The position numbers and the translations under genes are program-made. Shown in pieces: positions 20,841 through 36,647 of a stretch of DNA of 64,000 bases. The notes under the pieces were generated by a model, which saw only the letters and a list, made by a program, of their open reading frames with translations, did no database searches and was not told the origin of the DNA. Source of the DNA: Ralstonia pickettii (GTDB lineage: Bacteria; Pseudomonadota; Gammaproteobacteria; Burkholderiales; Burkholderiaceae); NCBI RefSeq assembly GCF_001699815.1, contig NZ_MCGB01000096.1, forward strand, positions 62,001-126,000. The letters run 5' to 3'. Each line of letters starts with the position of its first letter. Position 1 is the first letter of the stretch.

Positions 20841-20917
20841 GGGACGGTAGCTCATGGGTCGAGCGGCGACGGTTTACCGACGCAGGCAGGCAGGTTCAAA
20901 TCCTGTACGTCCCACCA
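20841..20917 (+). tRNA. tRNA-like gene with irregular anticodon arm
   Basis: A 77-base sequence folds as a cloverleaf. Acceptor GGGACGG/ACGTCCC has six of seven pairs, with discriminator A and an encoded CCA. The D-arm is GCTC/GAGC with GGG in the loop. The T-arm is GCAGG/CCTGT with loop TTCAAAT. The anticodon arm is odd: GCGAC/GACGC contains an A-A mismatch and encloses eight bases, GGTTTACC, so no standard seven-base loop with U33 can be drawn. A TATAGT box at 20829-20834 is well placed for transcription. It is either a decayed tRNA or an unusual one. The mobile island begins about 30 bases after its 3' end. Confidence 0.6.
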
Positions 20918-20945
20918 TCTGATGATTTATTGAGAAACAACAAAT

Positions 20946-21022
20946 GTGTGCCGTTAAGCATAAAGTGGCCATCTGGACAGGTTATGCTTGTTTACCCGAT
21001 GGGCCACATTTTGCTTTATTGC
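20946..21022. repeat. left end of Tn7-like element: transposase-binding repeats
   Basis: Three related repeats lie together. One is inverted at 20954-20970 (reads GGCCACTTTATGCTTAA on the minus strand). Two are direct, TGGACAGGTTATGCTTG at 20974-20990 and GGCCACATTTTGCTTTAT at 21002-21019. TGTGTGCC at 20946 could be the terminal TGT-type tip of a Tn7-like end, but no matching right end was found to confirm it. The same repeats recur at 48155-48281. Position between the tRNA-like gene and tniQ suits a transposon end bound by the TnsB domain. Confidence 0.75.
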
Positions 21023-21073
21023 TAAATCGTGTTAACGTGAAAAGTTGCCTGCTGCTCTGCAGAAGCAGGGCGC

Positions 21074-21097
21074 AAAAAAGCCGGCCACATGGCCGGC
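21074..21097 (-). terminator. rho-independent terminator of the tniQ operon
   Basis: On the minus strand GCCGGCC pairs with GGCCGGC over the loop ATGT, followed by six T (plus-strand A-run 21074-21079). It lies 23 bases after the tniQ stop and before the end repeats, so it should insulate the transposon operon from its end. Confidence 0.85.
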
Positions 21098-21119
21098 TTT
21101 CATAGTTCTTGATAGTCGT

Positions 21120-22418
21120 TCAGTTCGACTCGATTCGTTCCTTGGCGCCCCGCAGCAAGCTGATGACGCCCCTGACGCTGCCAAGAACTTGTTGAGGGAC
21201 TCGCGCCCTCATCTCCCGAAGATTGATAGCTTTGCCTTCGTCAACAATGTCCACGCAGGCAGCATCAATAGCCTCTCGCGCGTTTTCTAAACTCTGCTCC
21301 CCTCGGCGCCGCATATATTGCTGCCAGCGCTCGGCCAGGATGCGGGCCTCCGTGTTGGCGTTCTGGTAGAGCAAGCGCACATCAATATCGAGGCGCCGCG
21401 CCGCCTCAGCCACGCTCACCGGAACCGGCAATGTCCTCATCGCCATGAGTTCCACCCGTATCTGGTCCCAATCCAACGTCCGTCGCGGCGCACGCTGCCC
21501 GTGGCGCGGAAACAGCATGGCCAGCTGCTGGCATGGGACGGTTGCAGGCGACCAACCAGCCAAGTCACCTGCCAGTAGCTTGTGAAGCGACAGCCCCGCC
21601 TGTGAAGCGATGCGCAGATGAGCGGGCAACGCAGGTATGCCGCCATCTTTGAGCCAATGGTGCACCGTTGCCTTGCTCAGACCGATACGCCGAGCAAATG
21701 CCGCACTCTTACCGTTGTCCAGGCGGGTGACCAGCTCGCCTACGCTCTCGTGGAGCAGCGCCCTTGTCGGCAAAGACTCCAGCGTTGCCTGAGCTGCCAC
21801 CATCTCACCAACCTGAGACGCTTTCCAAATTTCCTCAGGAGTAGCTGGGTTGCGATGTTCAACATCACCGAGAAATGCTCCGCAGTGAGCGCACCACCCG
21901 GGCACGACGTAGGCAAACTTGTGCCGCGCATCGGTGCGGCCACAGTCGGGACAGATATGAACTAATTGCGTCTGGTGCCTTGGACATGTTGTGACGCAGC
22001 CGACTTCCCACGCCAGTCGGAAGTATGGTGATTGGCCTGACTCACGGTCTTCGGTCAAGCATTTCGGGCACCAACGCGCCAACGTTGTTGTGAGGCTTTG
22101 CTGGGCAATGACGTCTCTCCATGGCAGCAGCGTCAACCGGTCCAGGTTGCCAACACTTGTCAGCGCCGAGAGCGCCCCCGACCAGTTACTCGCTGCTTCG
22201 CCATTGCCGCTCAGGTGGAGGCGCTTCCAATTGTAATTTGCGGACAGCTCCTGCCCAATAGTCCCCGCGACCTTGCGCGACAACTCGGTGACGGAAACCG
22301 CGTGAGAGGCCGCCAATCGACACAGGTAGCTCAGCAGGCTCTCGACTTCCGGCGTGCCGATTCCGATAGGCGCCAGCGCATGCAAAGTAGAGCGCGGATT
22401 TACAAATTGGGTGGTCAT
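21120..22418 (-). CDS. tniQ: TniQ-family target-selection protein
   Basis: A 432-residue TniQ/TnsD-type protein. The zinc-binding N-terminal half has CPKC, a CPRH pair, CPDC and CAHC (about residues 142-196), and the C-terminal half contains a helix-turn-helix (FARRIGLSKATVHHWLKDGG, about 238-257) and a basic tail. Such proteins bind an attachment site or a targeting complex and recruit TnsC. At 432 residues it is shorter than TnsD (about 500) but longer than Cascade-associated TniQ. Its start overlaps the tnsC stop by 4 bases (ATGA), showing coupled translation. Two broken relatives lie at 32436-32595 and 48395-48835. Confidence 0.88.
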   Translation of the reverse strand: MTTQFVNPRSTLHALAPIGIGTPEVESLLSYLCRLAASHAVSVTELSRKVAGTIGQELSANYNWKRLHLSGNGEAASNWSGALSALTSVGNLDRLTLLPWRDVIAQQSLTTTLARWCPKCLTEDRESGQSPYFRLAWEVGCVTTCPRHQTQLVHICPDCGRTDARHKFAYVVPGWCAHCGAFLGDVEHRNPATPEEIWKASQVGEMVAAQATLESLPTRALLHESVGELVTRLDNGKSAAFARRIGLSKATVHHWLKDGGIPALPAHLRIASQAGLSLHKLLAGDLAGWSPATVPCQQLAMLFPRHGQRAPRRTLDWDQIRVELMAMRTLPVPVSVAEAARRLDIDVRLLYQNANTEARILAERWQQYMRRRGEQSLENAREAIDAACVDIVDEGKAINLREMRARVPQQVLGSVRGVISLLRGAKERIESN

Positions 22419-23458
22419 GCGGCACGCCTATCGTAACTTGCCCTTGAACGCTGGAGTTTTGGCATTACTCGAATGAGGCTCGGCCCGATGGCCGCCTCGC
22501 CGTCAACAATTTCCTCCAGAATTCGCTTGTGCTGTGCTTCATTGAGCAAAGCTCGCTTCAAGGCTTCGACAGACCAACCGCCACCGGCCTCCGAAAGTCT
22601 TGCCGCACGGGCGAGCACGCTGCTCAGCGTTCCCACGCATCCCAGCGTGTTCCCAAGGAGTGCATTGGAGTAGCGCGTCAACTGACCGCCCCATAGGTGC
22701 GACAACGCTTTCTCGAAGGACTGGATGCAGGCCTCAAATGCCCGAACATCCTCCGGTCGGTCCTCCCGATAACGCTCGAAATGCAGCACATGAGTGCGTC
22801 GCGCCAATTGCCCAGATAGTGAAACGAGTTGGTAGAGGTCATATGAGCCGACCATGACCATCTGGGTGCCACACTGGTTGACGAGGGACTTCAGCGTGTC
22901 CAGTTGAATCTCCAACCTGCTATTGCCACGCGTCTGACGAATGATGTGCGCCGCCTCGTCGATGACAACGAATCGAACTTGGCGCTCACGCAGTCCACGC
23001 TCAACAGCAGTCCGTAGCGCCGCGAGGCTATTGCCGCTGGCGCCTCGGGGGCGCACGAGCCGTCCCGACTGCGGGTCCACGCCGTATGCCACTTTGGGGG
23101 CGTCGAGGTTATCGCCCAGCTGACTCAGGATTCGCTGATAAAAAAGCCGCCAGGAGAAATCGCTCTCGCCAGACGCGGGCGCCTCAACGTAGATTGCTGG
23201 AATGACCCCAGCATTCGACTCCATCTGGGTGCTCGCCTGAACGAGCGCATTCTCGACCATAAATTTGGCCAACGTTGTTTTACCTGCACCCGTGGGGCCA
23301 CACACCAGTAGGATGCTGTCTTGGCTGCCGGGGTATATCAGCGTGTCAAGTTCAGCCATCACGTCGATAACACGTGTGTGTTTGATGCGCTTGCCTGACA
23401 AACTGCTGGCGGACGCTTTAACCGGCGACAGCGGAGAAGAGTGTTGTTGTTGCTGCAT
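22415..23458 (-). CDS. tnsC: TnsC/TniB-family AAA+ transposition ATPase
   Basis: A 347-residue AAA+ ATPase. Walker A is GPTGAGKT (about 54-61) and Walker B VRFVVIDEAAH (DE about 167-168), with the sensor-like segment MVMVGSYDLY and HFERYREDRPEDV downstream. In Tn7-like systems this protein forms filaments or rings on DNA and passes the target signal from TniQ to the transposase. Eight bases separate it from tnsAB and it overlaps tniQ. Family membership (TniB versus TnsC) cannot be split finely by eye. Confidence 0.88.
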   Translation of the reverse strand: MQQQQHSSPLSPVKASASSLSGKRIKHTRVIDVMAELDTLIYPGSQDSILLVCGPTGAGKTTLAKFMVENALVQASTQMESNAGVIPAIYVEAPASGESDFSWRLFYQRILSQLGDNLDAPKVAYGVDPQSGRLVRPRGASGNSLAALRTAVERGLRERQVRFVVIDEAAHIIRQTRGNSRLEIQLDTLKSLVNQCGTQMVMVGSYDLYQLVSLSGQLARRTHVLHFERYREDRPEDVRAFEACIQSFEKALSHLWGGQLTRYSNALLGNTLGCVGTLSSVLARAARLSEAGGGWSVEALKRALLNEAQHKRILEEIVDGEAAIGPSLIRVMPKLQRSRASYDRRAA

Positions 23459-23466
23459 AGGAAACC

Positions 23467-26238
23467 TTAAAAGTCCTCGAACTCAGGGGAGTCGTCCCCC
23501 GCTGCAGCCTCTTGCAGCGGTGCGGACGGATTTGTTGTTGTCCACGGTTCTGCCGGCACACCGACAGCACTTGATGAGGCCTCGATGAGGCTGAATCGAT
23601 GCGGAAGCGTTGCCGGCGTAACGCTCGACAGTTGCAGAAAGTTGTATAGCGATTTGTTTTCGGCCTGGCGGTCGAACTCAACAGCCATGGCGCCCTCAGG
23701 CGTAAAAATTTGCATGAATTCGCGAAGCCGCTGAGCAGCACGTTCGTCCGTCGCGCTTGCATGTGTCCGGCGGCGAAACTCTTCCGACAACGCCTTCTGC
23801 TCCGCTTCGGTCAGTTGCCCGAGGCCATGCAGGTTCCGGCAAACAGCTTGATGCCATTGGTCTTTCACACGAACGTAGACCGAAGAAGCATCCCATGGGT
23901 CATAACGGACAGACAGGTGCTTGCCCGCGACATTGGAGGACCGGAACACGTCATTCCAGTAAAGCCGGTCGTCCACCTTGACACCGCGTTGTCGATGGAC
24001 CTTCCGGGCACCGCCGCGGTCAACCGGTGGGCAGGTCGCAATTAGGAAAGCTTGGTTGAAGAGAATCTGCCGCTGCGGACGCACGCCGCTCTCGCGCAAG
24101 CCCCGTTGGAACGCATCCCTCGGGGATTCGTCGAGCGCCGGATGGCGCTCCTGGTCGTAGTACTCGGTGGCCCAGTATTGAATGCCGCGATAGAGCCTTT
24201 CGAGCGTCCATTCGGCGAGCTTCTTTGGCAGATGTGAGCCGGAAACTTCGCGCACGTTCTTCGTCGCCTTGGTGTTGCCAGCCAAATTGTGGATGTATTC
24301 GGTGTGCAAGCGCCCGAACATACGTTCAAGGACAGCACCGTGGCGCGGCCGCCCTGCTGGCCGAAAACGCAAATGGACGCCCATTACCTCTAGGAATGAC
24401 TGGAACGCGGCTGACATGAAATCACGGCCGTTGTCGACAACAATGAATTCAGGCAATCGATGGAATCGCTGGACCATGTCCCGGATGGCCATCATGACTG
24501 ACACATAAGATGGCGAATCGAAGGTCAGATAAAGCGCAAGAATGCGCCGCGACCAAGCGTCCACGACTAGTGTCAGCCACGGACGCCCGAGCGGCTTTCC
24601 CGACCGACTCGAAATGAGTTCAATGTCCAGTTGAGTATGGTCGATGTGGACGTATTGGAACGGCCGACTGCCGTGAACAGGTGTGTCGTAATAGAGTACA
24701 TCTACGAACGTATCCTGCTTGTAAGCCATGCGTTTTCCATGCCGAACCCGGACATCGTGATTGGTTTCCAATGCCTTGATGTGCTTTATCAAAGTCGGGT
24801 AGGAAATCGGCTCTACCGCCTCCTCTTTGCAAGCGACCAGAAGAAATCTGTGGCACGCCTTGTAATTGATGGCTTTGTTGGTCCGCCACTGTTCATCGAT
24901 GACCCGAGCCAGTACGGCCAATTGTGGTTCGCTCAGTCGCACCGTGCGATTGCCACGCGCTTTGGTGCGAGGAATCAACGCTACGCCTTTGCTACTGCCA
25001 TTTGCCTCGGCGACGCATTGGCGAGCCGCCCACCGTCTCCGCGTGCGGGGAGAACCAGCGCCGTCGGCTGAGCATGAGTCAAGCAACGCCTGCCGTCGCA
25101 GCGCCTCTTCGAAGTCCTCCTGCGAGTAACGGCTCAACTCCTGGCTGGCTGCGTGGCTACCGTGGAGTACGGTGATGTGCTTGTCTTCATGCGCGCCCAG
25201 TAGCCATGCGCGACGCAGCGTAATGCTCGCTCCATCTTGCGTGTTGCAGACCACACTTTCTTCGCCGACCACAACTACCGTCAGCTCCTGCCCCTCGAAC
25301 AGAAATGCGGTGCCCACTTTGATGTCGAGCGCGAATTGAGCCAGCCCGGGCGGGCCGGCTGTGGCAGCCTCTGCAATCATGAAGTCGCGCAGGACCTCAT
25401 CCCGATATAGACGAAATAACCGTTTCTCCGTCAGCGATTCGCGGTCGAGGTCCGTGGCAACTAAATTGTCGGCGATAGCCTTGTTGAGCATATCCGCGTT
25501 CAATTCGTAGGGCGCAGCAAGCAACTCAGAGAACGACAGGTGGCCGTGCACCTGTAAGGCTTCGCGCAGCACTGCCACCGCAGCAGCCGAGCACGGTTCA
25601 GTTGTGGGGCAAAAATAATCTGCTAGATACAGCAGATTTTCCACGCGCCGGCGCGGAATAAACGCATCGCTGAAGATGCGGTAACGAATACCGAGTTCCG
25701 CGAGCTGCTCTTCGATTTGGGGCGAGCGCCATAGACCGTCGCTCGTCTTGGCGTAGCGATATGGGTATCGCTCCGCGAGTCGAGTGAGCGTGGCTTCCGA
25801 CTTCCATTCTTCCAGTGTGAAACCATCGTGGCGGATAGTCAGGAAGTCCGGAATGTGTCGATGAGAATGGATTTCCCCAGTCGCCTTATCGACAAATTCG
25901 AATTGCCGTTCGCAAGGTTGCGAATAGAACTCGAGCACACCGTCGTCGTACTCCATTCCGACTGCCGCAGCAAATTCGATGTGGCGGCTTTCTGTGGCGA
26001 TTTCGCACCCCATTTTGCGGCTGGCCAGGATGGTGATGACATTGCCTCCCTTGGACGTCACGTCACGTACCGGGGCTTGGACTCTTGCATCCAAAATGAG
26101 CTTGCGACCAGCTGTCGGAGTGCCTAGTCGGTCGAAAAATTGGGTAATTTGGGTCTTGTCCAGCATGACGGTGTAAACAGCATTTCCTGATGAAGCCGTG
26201 TAGTCACGCCGAACTGGCATAATCGACAAATCGGTCAC
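23467..26238 (-). CDS. tnsAB: TnsA-TnsB fusion transposase
   Basis: A 923-residue protein joining two transposase subunits. Residues about 80-205 form a TnsA-type endonuclease with the PD-(D/E)xK residues E88 (RHIEF), D131 (HIPDF) and E144-x-K146 (EEWKSE), followed by the TnsA-like ending IFSDAFIPRRRVENLLYL. Residues about 435-850 form a TnsB/rve transposase with DDE residues D533 (VHIDHTQ), D602 (VVDNGRDF) and E638 (AVLERMFG), D to E spacing 35. TnsA cuts 5' ends and TnsB 3' ends, so the fusion predicts cut-and-paste movement. Start is GTG at 26238; an ATG at 26220 is also possible. First gene of the operon. Confidence 0.9.
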   Translation of the reverse strand: MTDLSIMPVRRDYTASSGNAVYTVMLDKTQITQFFDRLGTPTAGRKLILDARVQAPVRDVTSKGGNVITILASRKMGCEIATESRHIEFAAAVGMEYDDGVLEFYSQPCERQFEFVDKATGEIHSHRHIPDFLTIRHDGFTLEEWKSEATLTRLAERYPYRYAKTSDGLWRSPQIEEQLAELGIRYRIFSDAFIPRRRVENLLYLADYFCPTTEPCSAAAVAVLREALQVHGHLSFSELLAAPYELNADMLNKAIADNLVATDLDRESLTEKRLFRLYRDEVLRDFMIAEAATAGPPGLAQFALDIKVGTAFLFEGQELTVVVVGEESVVCNTQDGASITLRRAWLLGAHEDKHITVLHGSHAASQELSRYSQEDFEEALRRQALLDSCSADGAGSPRTRRRWAARQCVAEANGSSKGVALIPRTKARGNRTVRLSEPQLAVLARVIDEQWRTNKAINYKACHRFLLVACKEEAVEPISYPTLIKHIKALETNHDVRVRHGKRMAYKQDTFVDVLYYDTPVHGSRPFQYVHIDHTQLDIELISSRSGKPLGRPWLTLVVDAWSRRILALYLTFDSPSYVSVMMAIRDMVQRFHRLPEFIVVDNGRDFMSAAFQSFLEVMGVHLRFRPAGRPRHGAVLERMFGRLHTEYIHNLAGNTKATKNVREVSGSHLPKKLAEWTLERLYRGIQYWATEYYDQERHPALDESPRDAFQRGLRESGVRPQRQILFNQAFLIATCPPVDRGGARKVHRQRGVKVDDRLYWNDVFRSSNVAGKHLSVRYDPWDASSVYVRVKDQWHQAVCRNLHGLGQLTEAEQKALSEEFRRRTHASATDERAAQRLREFMQIFTPEGAMAVEFDRQAENKSLYNFLQLSSVTPATLPHRFSLIEASSSAVGVPAEPWTTTNPSAPLQEAAAGDDSPEFEDF

Positions 26239-26251: not shown

Positions 26252-26312
26252 TTCCTTGCAAGCGTGTGCTGGCTTAGAAGAGCAGATGCCAGGCATGGTC
26301 GGAGAACGACAA

Positions 26313-26609
26313 ATGAACGAAACGCAGCGCAATGAAGTAGCGCCGGCGGAGCCGCCCTACGCGCAATGGGAAGAACGGGCGAAGGAATTGGTTCTTTGGG
26401 GGATGGCGCAGCGCAAACTGGGCTACAAGGAACTGGCTCGGCGGCTCGAACGCTATGGAATCGAAGAATCGGCCGACCAGATAAACCGCAAGGTCAATCG
26501 AAAGCGGTTTTCTGCAGCTTTTCTGCTCGCTTGCCTGACCGCAATGGAACTGCAATCCATCCCCATTCTCGCCAAGCCGAAACAAACGAGCGCTCGTTCG
26601 TCGCGTTGA
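26313..26609 (+). CDS. small DUF6471-like protein, single domain
   Basis: A 98-residue protein. The core, from WEERAKELVLWGMAQRKLGY through KELARRLERYGIEESADQ to RKRFSAAFLLACLTAM, resembles a family I recall as DUF6471. It has a helix-turn-helix look: a 'tyrosine-KELA' helix, a Gly turn and a basic-aromatic helix. Start ATG at 26313 has GGAG 9 bases upstream; earlier in-frame ATGs lack one. It is divergent from tnsAB across 74 bases, so it may regulate the transposon or be its first accessory gene. No function is established. Confidence 0.65.
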   Translation: MNETQRNEVAPAEPPYAQWEERAKELVLWGMAQRKLGYKELARRLERYGIEESADQINRKVNRKRFSAAFLLACLTAMELQSIPILAKPKQTSARSSR

Positions 26610-26697
26610 AACCCACTTGCACGGCGCCCTAGTCGTTCGGTCCCGGCCGCTCGCCATCACCCCCTCCCAACATGGGTGGTCTTTCCCTTTCTGCTGT

Positions 26698-27186
26698 TTA
26701 AGCGATGTCGAGTAGCGCAATCAACGCATCAACCAGCCGCTCTGACGATAGACCCTGTTGACCGTCGAGAATCAAAGCCCTGTCGGTCAACTTGGCGAGC
26801 ACCTGTCGAACATCGCAGTCAATGAGGACCGGGTTTTCTGGTCGCCGGCGCTCGATATCAGCGCGGAGCCACTCTCGTCGAGGCACCAACGGCATGTTTG
26901 CCACGTGTAAAAGCCGGTTTCCCGGCAGCGTTGCCCCGACTACGCGCGCTTGCACAGTAGGTGGTAGCCGCTGCGCCGCACACCTGTAGCCGGAATAGAA
27001 AACCCACCATGTGTGCAATATGACGCGCGTTTTCGGCCTCGCGCAGATGACGCGTTCAAGCCAGGGGCTGTTTTCAAACAACGTGTGGCCAGCGACAAGA
27101 AGACGCGGCGTCTCCCCTTCATGCAGACGCACGTTGCGAGGATGGAGCACACCGTCGAAACCAAGGTAAAGGGTCGCAGGTTCCAT
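26698..27186 (-). CDS. HAD-like protein with altered nucleophile motif
   Basis: A 162-residue protein resembling the HAD domain found in RNA-repair ('Swiss army knife') proteins. The first motif reads LYLGFDGVLHP, where the usual DxDG carries Gly in place of the first, nucleophilic Asp. A later acidic motif, VLIDCDV, and the Trp-rich VILHTWWVFY segment follow. Without the nucleophile it may bind rather than hydrolyse phosphate, or motif I may be read differently. A GAGGAG site precedes the ATG. A related gene with an intact motif is at 29358-29837. Role unknown. Confidence 0.6.
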   Translation of the reverse strand: MEPATLYLGFDGVLHPRNVRLHEGETPRLLVAGHTLFENSPWLERVICARPKTRVILHTWWVFYSGYRCAAQRLPPTVQARVVGATLPGNRLLHVANMPLVPRREWLRADIERRRPENPVLIDCDVRQVLAKLTDRALILDGQQGLSSERLVDALIALLDIA

Positions 27187-27402
27187 CGCGACTCCTCGAT
27201 GGCAAACGCAGCGCCAAGAGCGGAGGCAGCTTCCTAGCCGGGAAACATCGGCTTAGAATTGCGCAGACTTCCTCTCTTCGCCGACAGAGATAGGGCCGAC
27301 TTCGCCATTGCGGCTGGAGTTCTGCTTCTGTTAAGTCGTCTTTTTGCACTGCTTGCCGCGCTCGCGACGAGCACACAGTTCTACAACCTAAAGGTTCGTG
27401 CC

Positions 27403-27906
27403 GTGAGTCACGTCGACACGCCCTGGACGCGCTTGGCCTCGCGCACTGCACGAGGGCTGCTTGCGCGCAAAGGATTCAGCTATGAAACCCTTGCCGCGCA
27501 GCTCTGCGCCATGGGAATCCAGGAATCCGTTAGAGGCGCGGAGAGTAAAGTTCAGCGAGGCTCATATCGCTTTGCATTTTTCCTCCAGGTTCTGAAGGCT
27601 GTCGATTCGGAGTACCCGCCATCTTGGAAGGCATACATCGAGACGGAGGATGCTTGGGAAATTGCTGCCAAGAAGATTGTCGTCCATGAGCTAACGGCTC
27701 ACGCGCTTGACGTTGCAAAACTCGGACACCGCCTGACGCGACTCGGCATCCCGGCAGAGGCCAGCTCTCTCGAATCGCAGATTGCATTTGGCGAATTCCC
27801 GTTTGTCCTAGTCCTACAGCTGTCTCTGGTCGCACCTATTGGCGGAATGGAGCGCTTCGTTGACCAGAGAGACATCGAGCACACAGCGGCGACCGTCAAT
27901 ACCTAA
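27403..27906 (+). CDS. tandem DUF6471-like protein
   Basis: A 167-residue protein with two copies of the same domain. Copy 1 (about residues 7-65) has WTRLASRTARGLLARKGFSY, ETLAAQLCAMGIQESV and YRFAFFLQVLKAV. Copy 2 (about 85-145) has WEIAAKKIVVHELTAHALDV, AKLGHRLTRLGIPAEA and FPFVLVLQLSLV. The second copy has lost the basic residues near its end. GTG at 27403 with AAAGG upstream is chosen; a longer frame to 27259 begins with an unlikely TTG and overlaps the promoter of the HAD gene. With the gene at 26313 this makes three such domains within 1.6 kb of tnsAB. Confidence 0.65.
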   Translation: MSHVDTPWTRLASRTARGLLARKGFSYETLAAQLCAMGIQESVRGAESKVQRGSYRFAFFLQVLKAVDSEYPPSWKAYIETEDAWEIAAKKIVVHELTAHALDVAKLGHRLTRLGIPAEASSLESQIAFGEFPFVLVLQLSLVAPIGGMERFVDQRDIEHTAATVNT

Positions 27907-28133
27907 GCTTGCCCTCATCGCGCGGAGCTTCTTGTAATTCTGCTTTTGCTCGGTTCGAGTTAGTCGGTACGTAAAAACACGCACCACTAGTGTAGGCCGG
28001 ATGGTAGGGGACACAAGCACTGTTACATCGTGCGCTCCCCATCGCGCATGTCTTGACAAGCCCGCTTTGCGACGCGCGTAGCGTCGCCAGAACTTTGCTT
28101 CCGAAAAGAGAGCACGAGTGCATCCCAGTAAGG

Positions 28134-29102
28134 TCAGCTACAGCAGTTCATGACAAGGGGGTCGCACGAACACTCATAGAAGTGGTCAACTGCTTTTTTG
28201 GCTTCGCGCTTGGCAGACGCCGCCAGCGTCGCAATCGCATCGCTATCGAGTTGAGAGTCTGAGGGCACCGAGACGACTCCCACGGCGACCGTCACGAAGC
28301 CATAGAAGCGGAGGTTGCCGTGACGGTCTTCACTGTTGATGCCGCCCGCTTTGATGTCCGCTGGCGTGTAAATCTCCACCGCTTTGCGATTGAAGTCCGC
28401 CATGGCGGTGCGGATGCGCGACTCCCAATCCTCGCTCTGGAAGAGAATCAGGAAATCGTCGCCGCCAACGTGCCCGAGAAAGTCACGAAGTGGGTCACAG
28501 GCCTCACTCAGGACCGCAGCCGCCAACTTAAGCATTTCGTCGCCCTTCCAATAGCCATACTGGTCGTTGAACGGCTTGAAGCTGTTTAGGTCGCAGTAGC
28601 ACGCGTGGAAGGGAGCTCCGCTTGTTAGCAGCCGCTTGATGTGGGCGTCAATTGGTAAGTTGCCCGGCAGGAACGTCAATGGGTTTGCGTACCTTGCCGC
28701 CTCGATACGCACTTCCGTGACCGCGCGTACAAGGTCCTCTCCTCGTGCAAGCCCTGCATAACGTCCATTCTCGACGAGCACCAGTCCATCCGCGAGATAG
28801 CGTTGGTCATCGCTGGCCAGCAGATTGACCAAATCTTCCATCGTCGCACCCTTTTCCAATACAGCGGGAGTGGGGTTCGCAATGGTCATACACGGCTTCT
28901 TGCCAAACAGGTCCCGGTGGTAAGGTAGCGCATACCAATCAATGAAAGAACGGCGACTGATGATGCCGACGGGCCGTTCATCCTTGACGACAGCGATAGC
29001 ATGCAGGTTTGGATGCTTAGAAAATGCTGCCAAAACATCGTTGTTACGTGTATCTGGCAACACGCTAGGTGCGTCAATTAAAAGTCGGCTTGCGGAGTTC
29101 AT
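28134..29102 (-). CDS. CBS-pair / GGDDF diguanylate-cyclase-like protein
   Basis: A 322-residue protein. Residues about 10-140 form a CBS pair (ATMEDLVNLLASDDQRYLADGLVLVE), and about 155-300 a GGDEF domain with the active-site motif GHVGGDDF and CDLNSFKPFNDQYGYWKGDEML. The RxxD feedback site expected five residues before GGDDF is absent. Family relatives carry an EAL domain in front; here it is missing, so this is either a naturally short form or a truncated one. It should make c-di-GMP if active. Only a weak ribosome site is seen. Confidence 0.78.
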   Translation of the reverse strand: MNSASRLLIDAPSVLPDTRNNDVLAAFSKHPNLHAIAVVKDERPVGIISRRSFIDWYALPYHRDLFGKKPCMTIANPTPAVLEKGATMEDLVNLLASDDQRYLADGLVLVENGRYAGLARGEDLVRAVTEVRIEAARYANPLTFLPGNLPIDAHIKRLLTSGAPFHACYCDLNSFKPFNDQYGYWKGDEMLKLAAAVLSEACDPLRDFLGHVGGDDFLILFQSEDWESRIRTAMADFNRKAVEIYTPADIKAGGINSEDRHGNLRFYGFVTVAVGVVSVPSDSQLDSDAIATLAASAKREAKKAVDHFYECSCDPLVMNCCS

Positions 29103-29357
29103 TTCTCAGTTTTTTCTTCAACTCACGTCCCAGCGCTGTCACTGGTATTGACAAGAGAACGACAACGTTACGTCGATTCAGTTCGTGCAGTTTCTTTGAC
29201 AGGCTCTTTGCAATCGCAGTGACAATCGCTCGCTCGAAGTCCATGTGCCACTCCCATGCGAAAGGGCTGCGACCGCTACATCCGCGCCGTCGAGAACTTA
29301 TCGAAAATTGCCCAGAGATTGGCTACTGCGGGTCGCGAACGGCTGGACGACGTACCA

Positions 29358-29837
29358 TCAACCAGAGGCTAGAATCGTTGCGAGCCTCGACCGCAGCGTC
29401 GCCTGGACAGCCGGAGCACTCAGACCTGTCTTCGAGGCGCATGCGATGAATCGTGCATCACATCGACCTGCAGCAACCACGCTCGGATGGTCGTCGATTG
29501 CGAGCCAGCGAGTAAGCCGACGCCGCCGAACTTCCGTCAGAATTTCGTCCGCCCTGGATGCGCCCCAGGTTTCCACAACACCAACGAAGCGGGCGCCAAG
29601 AGGACCAAGCACTCGTCTCAAATCGTCGTCATCGAGCAAGCGTCGCCAATCTGAGCTCACAATGATTTGAACCTCGGGGTGAGGCGCCAGGATGTCGACA
29701 AGGATTGGTCGCCAGCCGAACAAATTGGGATTAGCGATTAGGCGCCCAGCACTATCCAGAGCGGGCTCATCTGCAGCATGGAGTACGCCATCAAAATCCG
29801 TGAAGAGGACGAGGATTCGGGGAGCGCTTTTTGTCAT
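29358..29837 (-). CDS. HAD-like protein of the RNA-repair-associated type
   Basis: A 159-residue protein with the intact first HAD motif FTDFDGVLHA (nucleophile and acid/base Asp, about 13-15), motif II in QIIVSSDWRR and a late acidic motif WLAIDDHP. This is the small HAD form seen alone or fused in predicted RNA-repair proteins, possibly removing terminal phosphates. It has the same overall pattern as the gene at 26698 but keeps the nucleophile. It is upstream, on the same strand, of the CBS-GGDDF gene, at 255 bases, so not clearly an operon. Confidence 0.68.
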   Translation of the reverse strand: MTKSAPRILVLFTDFDGVLHAADEPALDSAGRLIANPNLFGWRPILVDILAPHPEVQIIVSSDWRRLLDDDDLRRVLGPLGARFVGVVETWGASRADEILTEVRRRRLTRWLAIDDHPSVVAAGRCDARFIACASKTGLSAPAVQATLRSRLATILASG

Positions 29838-30045
29838 ACCGTCGTCGACGTGAAGCTAGTGCAGTAACCAAGTTCCCGCCATTGTGACTGGAGGCGGCGA
29901 TATGAGAGCTACATGGCGGAGCCTGATATCTACACCGCGTGGCATGCAGACAGTTGGAATAGCTGGTTCGGCGTCTGCTATCACGAACCACCATCGCGGA
30001 GTGCATCGTATTCATCGCCCACATCGGTAGCCCCCTCCGACAGCG

Positions 30046-30375
30046 TCATTGAATTGTGTTGCAAGGCGCATCGTATTCTTCGGTTACATCCTTGAACTCC
30101 TTGACAGCGTTGTAGAGGGTCCAAAGCAGCCAAATATATTGAGCGTCATCGTCATATCCTGAGTTCCCCGACAACGCGTACCTCCGACCGCTACTGGTGA
30201 TACCAGTGCGTGTACGGAAATCAAACGAGACGACGGCCGAGGTGACGCGACCATGACTGCTCTCGACGCAATGGCCTACGAGGTGCCTCTGTCCCAGCTC
30301 GGTCTCAAACACTCTCCACCGTGTGAGCGTTGCTTGCGGCTGCACGCTGACCGGAGGAACTGTTTCGAATGACAT
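30046..30375 (-). CDS. small hypothetical protein, paralogue 1
   Basis: A 109-residue soluble protein. It shares with the gene at 31077 the pattern WRV..T..G.RH.VG.C, then SFD..T..G.T..G.R.ALSG, then a C-terminal DVT.EY. An AGGAG site precedes the ATG at 30375. It lies 27 bases after the gene at 30403, probably in one transcript. No recognised domain; a small beta-rich fold is suggested by alternating hydrophobic residues. It belongs to the accessory module next to the transposon. Confidence 0.6.
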   Translation of the reverse strand: MSFETVPPVSVQPQATLTRWRVFETELGQRHLVGHCVESSHGRVTSAVVSFDFRTRTGITSSGRRYALSGNSGYDDDAQYIWLLWTLYNAVKEFKDVTEEYDAPCNTIQ

Positions 30376-30402
30376 GATGACACTCCTGCCATTTATGGAT
30401 GC

Positions 30403-30852
30403 TCATCGCCTGCCATCAAGAAAGTCTTCCCAATCCCACAAGTACGCGCAGCCCGTCGGCTCAGGCTCGCCGGCAATCACCGGACAAGCAGAGTTTCGGA
30501 TGTTGGACGCGAAAAGAGCACGGGCAGGTTCAGGAATTTCACTCAAGCGGACGTACGCGAGCGAATCTGAAAAGTGGATTGGGACCAGGGGTATCCTTGG
30601 ACGGGCGGGCAGCTCTTCCTTCCCAGTCAAGCCCACGGCGATGCATCGCGCCACGAGGTCCCAGATACTGGCGCTATACCTCGGGTAGCCACTGAGCTGT
30701 CCCTCCCCCACCAAGCCGAATGGCTCCTCCCGAAGAGTCACGGCGTAGCGCCCCAGTCGGCCGCCCTGAATGCGCCCGATTTCAGCTATCGCCAGCGCCC
30801 CGTGACCGTCTGCGCAGCCGCTAGGAAGCAATTCAATCGTGATGAGCAGCAT
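30403..30852 (-). CDS. hypothetical protein of the accessory module
   Basis: A 149-residue protein with start at an ATG preceded by GAGGAG. The N-terminal part (LLITIELLPSGCADGHGALA, then IAEIGRIQGGRLGRYAVTLREE) looks like a beta-sheet core, and the C-terminus ends in a Trp-rich WDWEDFLDGRR. I do not recognise the family. It sits between the two paralogous small proteins, suggesting a conserved three-gene set. Confidence 0.55.
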   Translation of the reverse strand: MLLITIELLPSGCADGHGALAIAEIGRIQGGRLGRYAVTLREEPFGLVGEGQLSGYPRYSASIWDLVARCIAVGLTGKEELPARPRIPLVPIHFSDSLAYVRLSEIPEPARALFASNIRNSACPVIAGEPEPTGCAYLWDWEDFLDGRR

Positions 30853-31076
30853 CGCCAATCTCCTCGCCTCCGCAGAGGCGCCAACGTCCATACTGCGTGG
30901 GCGCACCAGCCACTCGCGTCGTCGTTCTACGGACGAGTCTTCCGCCGACCGAGAAGACGTGCTGCCGAACCATCATCGCGCCGCTGGGGACGTCGTCGTA
31001 CCTCGGTCAGTACCGCGCCCCTCCCTCTATTCGCTACTCTCGTCTGCGGCGTTGGTGTGATTCCATAAGCGCTACC

Positions 31077-31421
31077 TCAGGCGAGACACTCCCTTGTGAG
31101 CAATTCTGATAAATACTCGCCTGTCACGTCCTTATGACCTGAGACCTTGTTGGACCAAGCTGCGATGTACCAACAAAGCTTCACCAGACCTTTGTCTCGG
31201 CCAGCGACGCCCGACAAGGCAAATCGAAGACCGCCCTTGGTGAGGCCCACCCTGGCTGTGCCATCAAAGGAGATAATCGGCGGGCTGACCCGGCAGCAAC
31301 CGCCATTGCGCATGCATTTACCGACAAAGTGTCTGGTGCCAACGCAGGTTTGCATCACGCGCCACTCCACGAGGAGGGCGTCTCCTGCAATGTCTTCGAC
31401 CGTCGAAATCCACGTGTGCAC
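31077..31421 (-). CDS. small hypothetical protein, paralogue 2
   Basis: A 114-residue paralogue of the protein at 30046, with WRVMQTCVGTRHFVGKC, then ISFDGTARVGLTKGG, LRFALSGVAG and KDVTGEY in the same order and spacing. Start is GTG at 31421, with GGAG 8 bases before it. It lies 224 bases upstream of the gene at 30403 on the same strand. Function unknown; duplication of this family within one small module is the notable point. Confidence 0.58.
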   Translation of the reverse strand: MHTWISTVEDIAGDALLVEWRVMQTCVGTRHFVGKCMRNGGCCRVSPPIISFDGTARVGLTKGGLRFALSGVAGRDKGLVKLCWYIAAWSNKVSGHKDVTGEYLSELLTRECLA

Positions 31422-31734
31422 GGTGTTGCTCCTACGCTGTTAAGCAGCCTCATTGGGCGCAATGACGCCCTGCACAGGCGAGAGACGCCTTTGCTAGCAA
31501 GTCAGCACAACCGATTGCAAAAATTTGGGCACAAAACCACGCTCCTACGCCCGCTAAGCGGGCACAGGCGCGGTCAGCCCAAGCTCAGGCACGACGAGTC
31601 AGCAGCTCGATGGGCCGTCGGGGTGTCTTGCACGCAAGGGATGAGATTGTTGCCAGGAAGTAGTTCTGCTTGTGGCGGCAACAACTGATGCGCCGCTGGG
31701 GCGCGCGACTGCAGTCTAGGACGTTTGGTGAAAG
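31422..31734. other. 313 bases without a supported gene
   Basis: Between the GTG of the small protein (minus strand) and the M20 fragment. Short open frames here have no ribosome sites or recognisable products. It may carry the promoter of the 31077 gene and a join between island segments. No clear repeat or hairpin was seen. Confidence 0.5.
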
Positions 31735-31977
31735 ATGCAAGGCCACGTAGGCTATGGAAGAACACCTGTTGTTCTGCCGAGCATTGGAGGTTCGATTCCA
31801 AACCACGTGTTCTCGGACATTCTCCAGTTGCCGACCATCTGGATTCCACACTCCTACCCCGGCTACGCTCAACATGCGCCGGATGAACACATGCTGAGTG
31901 GGATTGCGCGAGAAGGACTCATGCTAATGGCCGGCCTCTGGTGGGACCTTGGAGACAATGGGGTCTACGCCTCTTGA
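31735..31977 (+). pseudogene. C-terminal fragment of an M20-family metallopeptidase
   Basis: Eighty codons read as the end of an M20 peptidase/desuccinylase-like enzyme: TPVVLPSIGGSIPNHVF, then LPTIWIPHSYPG and the metal-ligand motif QHAPDEHML, then MAGLWWDLG. Relatives are about 460 residues, so some 80 percent is missing, including the other metal ligands. The fragment is cut on its left side and overlaps by 13 bases the end of a LysR fragment on the other strand. Confidence 0.7.
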
Positions 31978-32321
31978 AAGGCTCGCATCGGGGAGCTGAG
32001 ATGCTGAAGGAGGCGGTTTGCCGCAGCGGAGAGCTGCCGACCAACACGAATCACCAGTTGAGCCTCCGAACTACGGAGGACAATGTTGTCGATGGGAATT
32101 GCCTTCAGCTCACCAGCGGCAAGCTCGGTGGCAATGGAGAACGGCGGTAGCAGACTGTATCCAAGGTCGCTCTTCGCAAAGAGCTTCAGGATGGCGATTG
32201 AGTTCGTCGTGATGGTTGGATTGAGCCGTATCTTCTCCAACATCATTGCGGCATCAACCAGTTGCCTCGTTCCATACGACGGATGCGTTAGAGCAACGGG
32301 ATAGGGAAGCCGTTGGCTTGC
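31965..32321 (-). pseudogene. C-terminal fragment of a LysR regulator
   Basis: About 118 codons match the last part of a LysR effector domain: ALTHPSYGTRQLVDAA, then TITTNSIAILKLFAKSDLGY, SLLPPFSIATELAAGEL and VGRQLSAAANRLLQHL. The DNA-binding half is absent; just upstream the frame turns into unrelated sequence and, after about 115 bases, into a tniQ remnant. It converges on the M20 fragment; the two may be remnants of one former LysR/peptidase pair. Confidence 0.7.
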
Positions 32322-32435
32322 GTTACTGGGGCAACCTAGTGAAAACCGTCTGCGGTCCAACGAACCCAAATCTGTAGTCGTGCCGGCGGCCGACTGCGTT
32401 CGGCCGCCAACACCTGTCAGCTCGCTTGTCGAAGC

Positions 32436-32595
32436 GAGGGACTCGCCCCCTCACTTCCCGAAGGTTGATTGCTTTGCCTTGGTTAGCGATGTTTGCATCT
32501 CGAAGGCAACGATTGATTCGGCCACCCGTTTCCGCGTGGCCATTTTCATTGGTGCGAAAATATCGCTCGACGCGAGCTAGCCGCGCAACAGCCAT
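32436..32595 (-). pseudogene. fragment of a second tniQ gene
   Basis: Over the first 46 bases this strand matches the intact tniQ (21194-21239) at about 41 positions. The peptide contains QGKAINLREVRGRVP against EGKAINLREMRARVP in the intact copy. Only a C-terminal piece of about 50 codons remains; the ending and the transposon end repeats are lost at a join with the LysR fragment. It is a relic of another Tn7-like element in the same orientation. Confidence 0.7.
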
Positions 32596-32603
32596 GTCGA
32601 AGG

Positions 32604-33038
32604 CTACTTTGTCGCCGAAGCGGCCGCGCGCAGTGCGAGCAGATAGCTGTCGACACCGAAACCGCAGATTTGTCCCTTCACAACTTCGGCGAACACCGAG
32701 TGATGCCGGAAGGCTTCACGAGCATGGATGTTCGACATATGCACCTCGACGACAGGCACCGTGAGAATCGCCAGCGCGTCGCGAATACCATAGCTGTAAT
32801 GAGTCCAGGCGCCGGCATTGATTAACACCGCGTCGACGCCATCGGTGAAGGCCTTGTGAATACGCTCGCACATCTCACCTTCGTGATTCGTCTGGAAGCT
32901 GTCAACTTCGACGTTCAACTCGCGACCGAGCGCTTGCAGTTTCTCGTCTATTTCGGCCAAGGTAATCGTCCCGTACTGGACCGGGTCGCGCTTGCCAAAC
33001 ATATTGTGGTTGACGCCATGAAGCATGAGTACTTTCAT
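32604..33038 (-). CDS. type II 3-dehydroquinate dehydratase-like protein, divergent
   Basis: A 144-residue AroQ-family protein. The family residues Asn (HGVNHN), Arg (GKRDP), Tyr (VQYG), Asn and His (INAGAWTH), His (EVHMSNIH) and Arg (AREAFRHH) are kept. The usual GPNLN and NPAAYTH loops read GVNHN and NAGAWTH, so the substrate pocket is altered. It may dehydrate 3-dehydroquinate or a related hydroaromatic acid. It is the last gene of a minus-strand group with a Gfo/Idh oxidoreductase and an MHS transporter (25 and 28 bases between genes). Confidence 0.78.
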   Translation of the reverse strand: MKVLMLHGVNHNMFGKRDPVQYGTITLAEIDEKLQALGRELNVEVDSFQTNHEGEMCERIHKAFTDGVDAVLINAGAWTHYSYGIRDALAILTVPVVEVHMSNIHAREAFRHHSVFAEVVKGQICGFGVDSYLLALRAAASATK

Positions 33039-33063
33039 TTCAATCCCTCCTTAACCTTGAGTT

Positions 33064-34116
33064 TCAGTCGCGCGGCAGTTCGACGACGGTGCCCGACGTA
33101 GCCGCTGTAATGATAGCTTCGGTGATGCGCAGGTTCTTGAGGCCGTCTCGCGCCGATACCAAAGGCGCGACCGCACCGCGAGCAACCGCACCAAAATGCT
33201 CCATCTGATGCTTGATGGGGTCATCTCGCACCATGCCGACCACGCCAGCCTCGAACGGCTTCCACCAAGAGCGGTCCTCGTCTCGCGGATAGGTTTTCAG
33301 CCGCATGGTCGGAATGGCCAGACTCCCGTTTGTACCTGCGACGAGGTAACAGTCTTCGTCTTCGTAGGTCGGGTAGGCCTTGTTCTCCTGTGACGTCTGC
33401 TCCCAGCTACGAGCACTGGCGGCCGCGTCCGAGAGCATGAACGTGCCGAGCGCGCCGCTTTCGAACCGAAGATTGATAGCGACAGTGTCCTCGACCGGAA
33501 ACGCTCTCGTCGCATGCGACTTGAATGCCTGGACGGCGACAATGTCGCCACAGAGCATGCGGAGGTTGTGCACTTCGTGAATCATGTTCAGCAGAATCGG
33601 GCCGGCGCCAATCTCGCGACGCCAGGGGGCATCGACAAAGTAGTGGTCCGGCTTCACGAACATCGCGGTACCGGTCACCGCGACGAGACGTCCGAGAACC
33701 CCCGAGTCCACGACCTGGCGAGCCTTCGCCATGATTGGGCTGTGGGCGCGGTGGTGGCCAATCAGAATCGGCACGCCTGCGCCCTCGCCAGCGCGCACCA
33801 GCACCTCGGCTTCGGCGACGGTCGCCGCAATTGGCTTCTCGAGCAGCATCGGTACCTGTGCTTCGAGAGCTTGCATTGCGTGTGCAACATGCAATTGGTT
33901 GGGCGTCGCGAGCACAACACCGTCCGGCTTATCCTTCTCGAACAGTTCGTCCAGTGTCGCGTAAAGCGGCACGTTCGCTTGTTCTGCGATTGCCTTCGCT
34001 GCAGGCGACGGGTCCACGATGGCCGAAAGCGCGCAGGTGCTACTCCCGACGGCCGCGCCGATATGCGCCTGTCCGATGTAGCCGGCCCCCGCGACGGCGA
34101 TTCGAGTCTTGTTCAT
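33064..34116 (-). CDS. Gfo/Idh/MocA-family oxidoreductase
   Basis: A 350-residue NAD(P)-dependent oxidoreductase. The N-terminal Rossmann motif is VAGAGYIGQAH (about 8-18). The conserved EKP motif is MLLEKPIAAT, and the second-domain histidine lies in NMIHEVHNLRML. Such enzymes oxidise or reduce polyols and sugar-like ring alcohols such as inositol. In this context a hydroaromatic (quinate/shikimate-like) alcohol is a reasonable guess. It sits between the transporter and AroQ-like genes in one transcription unit. Confidence 0.85.
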   Translation of the reverse strand: MNKTRIAVAGAGYIGQAHIGAAVGSSTCALSAIVDPSPAAKAIAEQANVPLYATLDELFEKDKPDGVVLATPNQLHVAHAMQALEAQVPMLLEKPIAATVAEAEVLVRAGEGAGVPILIGHHRAHSPIMAKARQVVDSGVLGRLVAVTGTAMFVKPDHYFVDAPWRREIGAGPILLNMIHEVHNLRMLCGDIVAVQAFKSHATRAFPVEDTVAINLRFESGALGTFMLSDAAASARSWEQTSQENKAYPTYEDEDCYLVAGTNGSLAIPTMRLKTYPRDEDRSWWKPFEAGVVGMVRDDPIKHQMEHFGAVARGAVAPLVSARDGLKNLRITEAIITAATSGTVVELPRD

Positions 34117-34144
34117 GCTTCGTATTGCTCCTCAGTCATTGCGC

Positions 34145-35548
34145 TTAGGCGCGTGATTGCGCAAGAGCCTGCTGGCGCATCTCTTGATACTCAGGTTTGC
34201 TGACCGGGCTCGCATCAGGCTTGCCCAAATCGTTCAGCGCAATCCGATAGGTTTCGCGCGCACTCCAGGCCGCAACCGCCGCCACAACGGTGATGCCAAA
34301 CGTGATTGCGCCGATGGTCATCGGAATGCCGGTCGCGCCCGGAGGTGCCACGGCGGCAAAGAGCGCGGGCAACAGCGCGGTGAGTGCCGTTCCGACGTTC
34401 TGAGCAATGGCGACGGCGGTCACTCGCGTGCGTGTTGGGAAGAGCTCCGGATAGAGGCTCGGAAAGATTGCGTTGTAGCCTTGATAGATAACGCCCCACA
34501 TCAGGAGCGACATGCCGATGGCTACCGGAACGTTCTTGATACTGATTGCGTACAGATAGAAGAACGACAGCAGCCCGGATACGAGCGCACCACCGATGAC
34601 GAGGGGCCGTCTTCCGACGCGGTCCGACAGGTTGCCAACATAGGGAATAACAAGCACCGCGACGATGTTGCCGAGCACCGGAATCCAGAGATAAATGTCC
34701 TTCGCTAACCCGATTCCATAACCCGGCTGTACCGCGTATGCCGCGCCGAACACGGTAGTCACGACCGGAATGACGTTCATCAGGGCGATGCCGACAACGC
34801 GAAGCATGTCGCGCCAACCGTATTTGAACGCTTCCACGATTGGAGAGCGCGGCACGGCGTTCTTGATGCCTTCGTCCTGAAAGGCGGGTGTCTCTTCCAC
34901 TTTTCGTCTGATGACGTAGCCCGCGACAATGACCAGGAAGCTCAACAGGAAGGGCAGACGCCAACCCCAGGAATTGAAAGCGTCTTCCGGCATGTAATGA
35001 GCCAGTGGAAGGAACACGGCGGCGGCGACAATCTGGCCGCCTTGCACACCCTGAAGCGTGAAGCTTGCGTAGTAACCCCGGCGCCCAAAGGGGGCGTGCT
35101 CCAGAATCATGGAGGCCGCACCGGAAATCTCCCCGGCGACCGCGAACCCTTGGATGAGCCGCATGATGACGAGCAGCGTGGGAGCGAGAACGCCGGCTTG
35201 TTGGTAGGTGGGCAGAAGTCCGACCGCCATTGTCGAGAATCCCATCAGGAACATGCAGGTGATGAGCACTTTCTTCCGTCCATGCGTATCGCCCAGGTGC
35301 CCCAGGAAGAACGCGCCAATGGGTCGTGCGACGTACCCCACGCCGTACGTGGCCAGCGAAGCCACGATGGCGACTGTGGGGTTGCCTTTGGGAAAGAAGA
35401 TTTGCGGGAAGATGAGCGAAGCAGCCGTCGCGTAGATGAAGAAGTCGTAGTACTCGAGTGCTGAGCCTATCCAACCGCTCGCAACAGCTCTTCGCGTCTG
35501 CCGGGTCGGGTGTCCGCCGTCGGCCGCATTGCTGGCTTGATGCTTCAT
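34145..35548 (-). CDS. MFS transporter, metabolite:H+ symporter (MHS/ShiA-like)
   Basis: A 467-residue protein with 12 predicted membrane spans. MHS features are the start GWIGSALEYYDFFIYATAASL, motif A GHLGDTHGRKK in loop 2-3 and NLSDRVGRRPLV in the loop 8-9 repeat. The family takes up organic acids with protons, including shikimate, citrate and alpha-ketoglutarate. As first gene of the minus-strand group with AroQ-like and Gfo/Idh enzymes, it probably imports the substrate. Divergent from the LysR gene at 35667. Confidence 0.87.
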   Translation of the reverse strand: MKHQASNAADGGHPTRQTRRAVASGWIGSALEYYDFFIYATAASLIFPQIFFPKGNPTVAIVASLATYGVGYVARPIGAFFLGHLGDTHGRKKVLITCMFLMGFSTMAVGLLPTYQQAGVLAPTLLVIMRLIQGFAVAGEISGAASMILEHAPFGRRGYYASFTLQGVQGGQIVAAAVFLPLAHYMPEDAFNSWGWRLPFLLSFLVIVAGYVIRRKVEETPAFQDEGIKNAVPRSPIVEAFKYGWRDMLRVVGIALMNVIPVVTTVFGAAYAVQPGYGIGLAKDIYLWIPVLGNIVAVLVIPYVGNLSDRVGRRPLVIGGALVSGLLSFFYLYAISIKNVPVAIGMSLLMWGVIYQGYNAIFPSLYPELFPTRTRVTAVAIAQNVGTALTALLPALFAAVAPPGATGIPMTIGAITFGITVVAAVAAWSARETYRIALNDLGKPDASPVSKPEYQEMRQQALAQSRA

Positions 35549-35643
35549 TGTTTCGTCTCCATGTATGACCGCCGCGTACTTGACGCGCGGCTTTGTCTGG
35601 AGCGGAGATTAAAGTCAACCGATGCGATTACAATGCGTGCATC

Positions 35644-35672
35644 GTTCACTTTAATCATTCCAAATCGTGAAC
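35644..35672. promoter_or_regulatory. inverted repeat between MHS transporter and lysR
   Basis: GTTCAC (35644-35649) and GTGAAC (35667-35672) form 6-base arms 17 bases apart. The right arm contains the GTG used as the start of the LysR gene, so binding would affect its own expression. Size fits a LysR site; the arms are short. Confidence 0.5.
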
Positions 35673-36590: not shown

Positions 36591-36647
36591 ATTCCGAGAA
36601 CGTCGAGAACATATGGGGAAGCCCTTCATGCGTCGAGGTTGATTTCA

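What the first reader, a model, noticed from the sequence alone, without database searches (positions are those of the whole stretch)
20946..26238. Tn7-like operon with a TnsA-TnsB fusion and a TniQ, without CRISPR
Complete catalytic residues are visible in both TnsA (E88, D131, E144xK146) and TnsB (D533, D602, E638), with intact tnsC and tniQ. TnsAB fusions are known in some Tn7-like and CRISPR-associated families, but here no cas genes occur and the lone TniQ sits beside the tRNA-like gene. TniQ may therefore recognise that gene directly.
Basis: partly seen in the sequence, partly recalled or inferred. Interest (0 to 1): 0.75.

Follow-up and report, generated by a model that had tools for sequence, protein, structure and literature searches.

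The report
tRNA-homing Tn7-like transposon in Ralstonia
A large bacterial jumping element sits at a fixed distance behind a tRNA-shaped gene that probably does no decoding, most likely found by a protein rather than a CRISPR guide, and its relatives sit in the same way behind other tRNA-type genes.

Summary
Window 21120-26238 encodes TniQ, TnsC and a TnsA-TnsB fusion; the named catalytic residues are invariant in 11 aligned TnsAB. The right end starts at 20947, 29 nt after the CCA of the tRNA-like gene. A left-end site array lies at 48156-48257 without its terminus, so this copy is probably immobile. Two relatives show 5-bp target duplications (Ralstonia ASV6 CGGAG; G009 AAAAC). In 16 genomes of the genus all 15 end matches lie in the island behind this gene. 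Of 25 close-clade loci, 20 gave a mapped right end; 19 of these 20 sit 28-31 nt after the 3' end of a tRNA, tmRNA, tRNA-like gene or tRNA fragment. The TniQ matches the homing protein TnsD of a type I-B CAST better than that system's Cascade-bound TniQ. Cas1 and Cas6 were not found in the genome. The kind is known; what looks new is this betaproteobacterial CRISPR-free clade, its range of targets, and a genus-specific pseudo-tRNA as target.

The parts
20841..20917 (+). tRNA-like (pseudo-tRNA) gene, the attachment site; present in 15 of 16 genomes of the genus
20942..20946 (.). 5 bp next to the right end (AAATG), presumed copy of the target duplication; the partner copy cannot be checked because the left terminus is lost
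20947..21020 (+). transposon right end, TGTGCCGTTAAGC..., with three TnsB-type sites (20954-20970 -, 20975-20991 +, 21002-21018 +)
21120..22418 (-). tniQ, TnsD-type target selector, 432 aa
22415..23458 (-). tnsC, AAA+ ATPase, 347 aa
23467..26238 (-). tnsAB, fused TnsA endonuclease and TnsB DDE transposase, 923 aa, catalytic residues present
26256..48150 (.). stretch between operon and left-end array, presumed cargo: two DUF6471, two HAD_SAK_2, GGDEF-CBS, MFS transporter, CoA-transferase III, shikimate dehydrogenase, two LysR regulators, UvrA-like, LtrA and others; 42314-47804 is shared at 99% with G008
32323..32595 (-). probable remnant of another TniQ C-terminal region (short DNA match 32436-32493 to relatives' TniQ region, letters read by eye; no Pfam hit)
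48156..48257 (+). left-end array of three TnsB-type sites (48156, 48186, 48241); the terminus is missing
48262..48850 (.). remnant of the right end and TniQ of a second, tandem element, fused to the left-end array

Best explanation
This is a Tn7-like cut-and-paste transposon that homes to a tRNA-type gene by protein. Inferred steps: the TnsD-type TniQ binds the 3' part (T-arm, acceptor, CCA) of the tRNA-like gene at 20841-20917; TnsC loads next to it and sets direction and spacing; the TnsAB fusion cuts both strands at both ends and inserts the element 28-31 bp beyond the CCA, making a 5-bp duplication. Shown by sequence: the protein set, the ends, the duplications in two relatives, the constant spacing, the use of one site within the genus, and tandem junctions at that site. 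In the window copy the left terminus is missing and the array is joined to the remnant of a second element, so this copy is probably stuck.
For: Right end found in 9 of 16 genus genomes, 15 of 15 end matches (11 right-end, 4 left-end-type partial matches) inside the island behind the tRNA-like gene. 5-bp duplications CGGAG/CGGAG (Ralstonia ASV6 = G013) and AAAAC/AAAAC (G009). 19 of 20 close-clade loci with a mapped right end (of 25 loci) sit 28-31 nt after a tRNA-type 3' end: 3 pseudo-tRNA, 8 tRNA(CAT), 2 fragments of tRNA(CAT), 2 tRNA-Ser, 2 tRNA-Gly, 2 tmRNA. In the genus the 25 nt after the CCA are poorly conserved (0.449 mean pairwise identity against 0.939 in the gene), so recognition most likely lies in the gene. 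TnsD is the best PDB match by sequence and by Foldseek E-value; TnsAB and TnsC match chains of the same type I-B system. Target type needs 5 changes on the TniQ tree for 6 types, the minimum, against 7 or more in 500 shuffles. No Cas1 or Cas6 match.
Against: Binding is not shown. The TnsAB tree fits the target types just as well (5 changes), so the trees do not single out TniQ as the reader of the site. One relative (P. lycopersici) sits beside the 5' side of a tRNA-Sec gene. Five of 25 close-clade loci gave no mapped right end. PADLOC's best TniQ model is labelled I-B. The window copy has no checkable target duplication. The three Ralstonia elements form one clade, so their shared target may partly be common descent. 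The G009 element is 75 kb long and holds an internal right-end remnant, so it may be composite.
Confidence: 0.92

Rival explanations
1. It is a CAST that lost, or uses in trans, a Cascade; TniQ is a Cascade adaptor and the tRNA-like gene was reached through a guide RNA.
For: PADLOC best model TniQ_IB; TnsAB and TnsC match type I-B CAST chains; 8fcu_P (Cascade-bound TniQ) is second in the fold search with TMt 0.66.
Against: TniQ aligns to TnsD over residues 6-348 but to the Cascade TniQ only over 8-186; no Cas1 or Cas6 match; no array; one TniQ only in the window operon; the same geometry in many relatives at different tRNA-type genes.
Confidence: 0.03
2. The island was brought by another route (for example the tyrosine integrase seen at this locus) and the Tn7-like genes are passengers.
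For: A tyrosine integrase gene lies behind the tRNA-like gene in G010 (Pfam Phage_integrase E=6e-12); the same flanking segment occurs in G014 and G015, with a 51-bp 84% repeat in G014.
Against: TnsB-type sites, TGT...ACA termini and 5-bp duplications bound the Tn7-like elements themselves; constant spacing in hosts of other genera.
Confidence: 0.02
3. The target is not the tRNA-like gene itself but a feature of its neighbourhood (for example the conserved promoter or the epimerase gene).
For: The 50 bp upstream of the gene are also conserved (0.915).
Against: Relatives in other genera share only tRNA-type 3' ends at the same spacing, and in two of them only a 3' fragment of the tRNA is seen (by eye).
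Confidence: 0.03

Closest known systems
Homing module (TnsAB, TnsC, TnsD) of type I-B2 CAST PmcCAST and of I-D CASTs such as CyCAST
   Same: Fused TnsAB, TnsC, TnsD-type selector, insertion about 30 nt behind a tRNA gene (30-33 nt for CyCAST, passage); best PDB matches
   Different: No cas genes found and no second TniQ in the window operon; betaproteobacterial hosts; 30-35% identity to the cyanobacterial plasmid TnsAB that cover at least 80% of it; targets include a pseudo-tRNA and tmRNA
CRISPR-free Tn7-like elements of the fused-TnsAB subfamily in cyanobacteria
   Same: Same kind of backbone; PMC11406308 (passages) says relatives with non-CRISPR targeting exist
   Different: Hosts and targets; not compared directly here
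Prototypic Tn7 (TnsABCDE, behind glmS)
   Same: TnsD homing at a fixed distance (passages); 5-bp duplication and TGT/ACA ends (passage and recall)
   Different: Separate TnsA and TnsB, protein-gene target, TnsE present
Bacillus cereus tRNAOther pseudo-tRNA beside an island (PMC3399842, start of abstract)
   Same: A non-decoding tRNA-like gene next to an island
   Different: Unrelated organism; island type and RNA sequence not compared

Membership tests
Tn7-like transposon | TnsA endonuclease + TnsB DDE transposase + TnsC ATPase + TniQ/TnsD | tested here: met
Tn7-like transposon | arrays of TnsB-type sites at both ends, TGT/ACA termini, 5-bp target duplication | tested here: met
   met in relatives G013 and G009; the window copy has the right end but a truncated left end, so its duplication cannot be checked. 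TnsB binding of the sites is inferred.
tRNA-homing fused-TnsAB subfamily (I-B2/I-D-type backbone) | natural TnsA-TnsB fusion related to that of the type I-B system | tested here: met
   9bw1_M E=5e-136, residues 28-874
tRNA-homing fused-TnsAB subfamily (I-B2/I-D-type backbone) | insertion about 30 nt 3' of a tRNA gene | tested here: met
   29 nt in the window; 28-31 nt in 19 of 20 close-clade loci with a mapped end; the Ralstonia target is tRNA-like, probably not a decoding tRNA
CRISPR-associated transposon (CAST) | cas effector genes and CRISPR array within the element | tested here: not met
   no array; no Cas1/Cas6 in the genome; no cas hit among 18 presumed-cargo proteins given to Pfam; other cas families not searched genome-wide
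TnsD-type selector | C-terminal DNA-binding region beyond the TniQ core | tested here: met
   weak HTH_17 match at 242-270, under cut-off; helical C-terminal half and alignment to TnsD 8v32_J over 448 columns, TMq 0.61, 24% identity, rmsd 20.6, so domain placement is uncertain (pLDDT 78.7, pTM 0.63)
TnsD-type selector | sequence-specific binding to the attachment site | not testable with these tools
   inferred from insertion geometry only
functional decoding tRNA (for 20841-20917) | 7-nt anticodon loop with a conserved anticodon | tested here: not met
   18-nt arm; loop letters TTTA/TTTG/CCAA/CTAA among 9 distinct sequences; no 3-letter anticodon by ARAGORN; acceptor pair 7-67 never forms

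The most novel reading that the evidence does not exclude
A betaproteobacterial clade of CRISPR-free tRNA-homing Tn7-like elements whose target selector has switched repeatedly between tRNA-type genes (CAT-anticodon tRNA, Ser, Gly, tmRNA, and in Ralstonia a genus-specific pseudo-tRNA) while keeping the same spacing. The Ralstonia target is itself an undescribed, promoter-bearing, non-decoding tRNA-like RNA kept by selection, so the element has tied its safe site to a gene whose job is not translation.
Probability: 0.55. Interest if true: 0.6.

Novelty: new member of a known kind. Interest (0 to 1): 0.45.

Why it matters
The close relatives form a natural series: TniQ orthologues of 43-77% identity to the window's, most with a target gene and exact insertion point readable from sequence, all but one with one geometry. 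That makes the question of how a TnsD reads its DNA site directly testable, without CRISPR. It also shows Tn7-like elements behind a probably non-decoding tRNA-like gene and behind tmRNA, and it points to a conserved tRNA-like RNA of unknown function in Ralstonia.

Tried and rejected
a single-protein scan of genome contigs found no relative; the alignment scan found 17 loci; a left end was sought only up to 33.1 kb and not found. I first took the cluster at 48150-48280 for the right end of a second element only; comparison with G009 and G010 showed the left-end array of this element fused to a remnant of a second one. I first took G015, G014 and G010 for empty sites; G010 and G015 carry Tn7-like ends further in, G014 has a diverged left-end-like stretch read by eye that the search did not find, and G010 has an integrase there. 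Left ends of relatives outside Ralstonia were mostly not found in the stretches fetched; the G320 candidate was unclear. None of 8 cargo proteins gave a PADLOC hit. An ordinary decoding tRNA was rejected because the loop varies and the arm has the wrong length. In one search I had left P. bryophila and G357 untyped; with their targets added, the count stays at 5, but the TnsAB tree gives 5 too, so I no longer use the TniQ tree as evidence that TniQ alone carries specificity; confidence was lowered by 0.01 for this. Literature searches: I saw no pseudo-tRNA or tmRNA target of a Tn7-like element named in the listings, but these hold open-licence papers only, lists were cut, and most papers were seen as listing only.
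Full report
What is there. The window is G000:C96:62001-126000. The three genes are real: TniQ 21120-22418, TnsC 22415-23458 and TnsAB 23467-26238, all on the minus strand. The genome holds one such TnsAB plus two weak matches of 26-27% to its TnsB part. The genus is most likely Ralstonia: relative G013 sits on a contig of 97180 bases whose length and element position match a contig of Ralstonia sp. ASV6. The species of the window is not known.

Ends. The right end starts at 20947 with TGTGCCGTTAAGC and carries three 17-base sites of the kind TnsB binds (binding inferred). The left end was found by comparison. In G009 a four-site array ends in CGGCACA, followed by AAAAC and then by the right end of a second element; the same AAAAC precedes the first right end, 75 kb away; a right-end remnant lies in between, so this stretch may be composite. 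In G013 (Ralstonia ASV6) CGGAG flanks a 43-kb element on both sides. G010 shows a similar left-end / 5 bp / right-end junction. In the window the left-end array at 48156-48257 runs straight into the third site of a second element's right end, followed by TniQ remnants. Its terminus is lost and this copy is probably immobile. Part of the stretch in between, 42314-47804, is shared at 99% with G008, where it follows a right-end and TniQ remnant directly.

One site in the genus. The tRNA-like gene with its flank is found in 15 of 16 genomes, the window's included; the missing one, G001, is 90% complete in 370 contigs. A 74-base right-end query gives 15 matches (E<=0.01) in 9 of the 16: 11 right ends and 4 left-end-type partial matches. 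By position all 15 lie between the tRNA-like gene and the host flank behind the island, or directly behind the gene where that flank is on another contig (G013, G005); none is elsewhere. In seven genomes (G000, G002, G005, G008, G009, G011, G013) a right end sits directly behind the gene, 28-31 nt after the CCA, counted. Seven genomes gave no match; one of these, G014, has a diverged left-end-like stretch read by eye.

Other hosts. TnsAB relatives of at least 56% identity were found in 25 loci (26 with a second copy beside the Burkholderia LMG 13014 one): 16 among 398 genomes of the family, nine more by a scan of genome contigs with patterns of the close clade. All with a usable name are betaproteobacteria; distant phyla were reached only by the close patterns and by plasmids. 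For 20 of the 25 a right end was mapped; the five without are two Caballeronia novacaledonica loci (G044), the second Caballeronia M1242 copy, Burkholderia LMG 13014 and an Azonexus MAG. Taking the first base of the element as 7 before the first site, 19 of the 20 lie 28-31 nt after a tRNA-type 3' end: 3 behind the pseudo-tRNA, 8 behind tRNA(CAT), 2 behind a 3' fragment of tRNA(CAT), 2 tRNA-Ser(TGA), 2 tRNA-Gly(CCC), 2 tmRNA. The exception, Paraburkholderia lycopersici, has its end beside the 5' side of a tRNA-Sec gene. A distant group of about 30% identity also lies near tRNA genes: I looked at 12 of the 24 distant rows, and 9 of the 12 have tRNA-Arg(CCG), tRNA-Leu(TAG) or tRNA-Ala(GGC) beyond TniQ; their ends were only read by eye.

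The selector. By sequence the TniQ matches TnsD of 8v32 over residues 6-348 (E=5e-38) and the Cascade-bound TniQ of 8fcu over 8-186 (E=7e-18); TnsC of those entries is one sequence, so both belong to one type I-B system. By fold 8v32_J ranks first (E=3e-22, 448 columns, TMq 0.61, TMt 0.57, rmsd 20.6) and 8fcu_P second (E=3e-14, 337 columns, TMq 0.52, TMt 0.66, rmsd 7.4). The model is moderate (pLDDT 78.7, pTM 0.63, 17 sequences), so domain placement is uncertain. PADLOC's best model is TniQ_IB, a sign the other way. A tree of 24 TniQ puts the three Ralstonia proteins together (100/99). Target type (21 typed rows, six types) needs five changes, the least possible, against a mean of 9.7 and a minimum of 8 in 500 shuffles; but the TnsAB tree (18 typed rows) also needs five, so the trees show that targets are inherited with the element, not which protein reads them. 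No array was found in the element, and no Cas1 or Cas6 in the genome.

The target gene. Nine distinct versions among the 15 genomes share D-arm and T-arm letters throughout except one T-loop position. Two pairs change on both sides (4-70 and 28-41): by pairs 2 against a shuffled mean of 1.1 (146 of 500 shuffles reach it), by cells 6 against 1.9 (1 of 500); acceptor pair 7-67 never forms. The anticodon arm has 18 nt and its loop letters vary. Mean pairwise identity is 0.939 in the gene, 0.915 in the 50 bases before it, 0.76-0.83 in the neighbouring gene and spacer, and 0.449 in the 25 bases after it. A covariance model scores E<=7e-23 only in those 15 genomes of 398 in the family; the next best is 5e-10, and the eight such matches I examined are tRNA-Val(CAC) (6) or tRNA-Ile(GAT) (2). 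It is therefore a genus-specific tRNA-like gene, most probably a pseudo-tRNA. Function and expression were not tested.

Comparison with print. PMC10293859 (passages and section 8) reports I-D CyCAST with TnsAB and TnsD homing 30-33 nt behind tRNA-Leu. PMC11406308 (passages) states that the fused-TnsAB subfamily uses TnsD proteins for different tRNA genes and includes members with non-CRISPR targeting. PMC8649781 (passages) mentions Tn7-like elements downstream of tRNAs. PMC12585508 (whole short text) describes TnsC-TnsD and TnsABCD structures of a type I-B CAST; that 8v32 belongs to that work is recalled. PMC3384475 and PMC10702557 (passages) report Tn7-like islands in Cupriavidus and Burkholderia; the passages name no such target. 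The kind is therefore known; the clade, its spread of targets and the pseudo-tRNA target appear new within what was searched.

Noticed in passing
window 20841-20917: Genus-specific tRNA-like gene with a probably non-decoding anticodon arm and a conserved TATAGT upstream; highest-scoring ordinary tRNAs of the same model are tRNA-Val(CAC) and tRNA-Ile(GAT).
   Followed up: partly
G136 10720-10807, G071 8829-8916, G372 10327-10414 (positions; loci L088, L016, L094 in window-like orientation): An 88-nt tRNA(CAT) with a long variable region; in G136 and G372 it lies behind what reads by eye as the rpoD 3' end.
   Followed up: no
L145 near 7462-7472 and L146 near 7406-7420 (reverse-complement coordinates): Doubled terminal sequences (TGTGCCGTTA repeated), perhaps traces of earlier insertions at the same place.
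   Followed up: no
L041:3246-4481: A tyrosine integrase (Pfam) behind the same tRNA-like gene in G010; the same segment and a 51-bp repeat in G014 suggest a second element type using this locus.
   Followed up: partly
window 26256-27906 and 29358-29837: Two DUF6471 genes and two HAD_SAK_2 genes right behind the transposase operon; function unknown, no PADLOC hit.
   Followed up: no
L143:13843-16554: Two different TniQ genes in tandem in Paraburkholderia bryophila.
   Followed up: no
G377, G261, G295, G317, G216, G281, G337, G239, G178: A distant TnsAB clade (about 30% identity) whose TniQ side lies near tRNA-Arg(CCG), tRNA-Ala(GGC) or tRNA-Leu(TAG) genes.
   Followed up: partly
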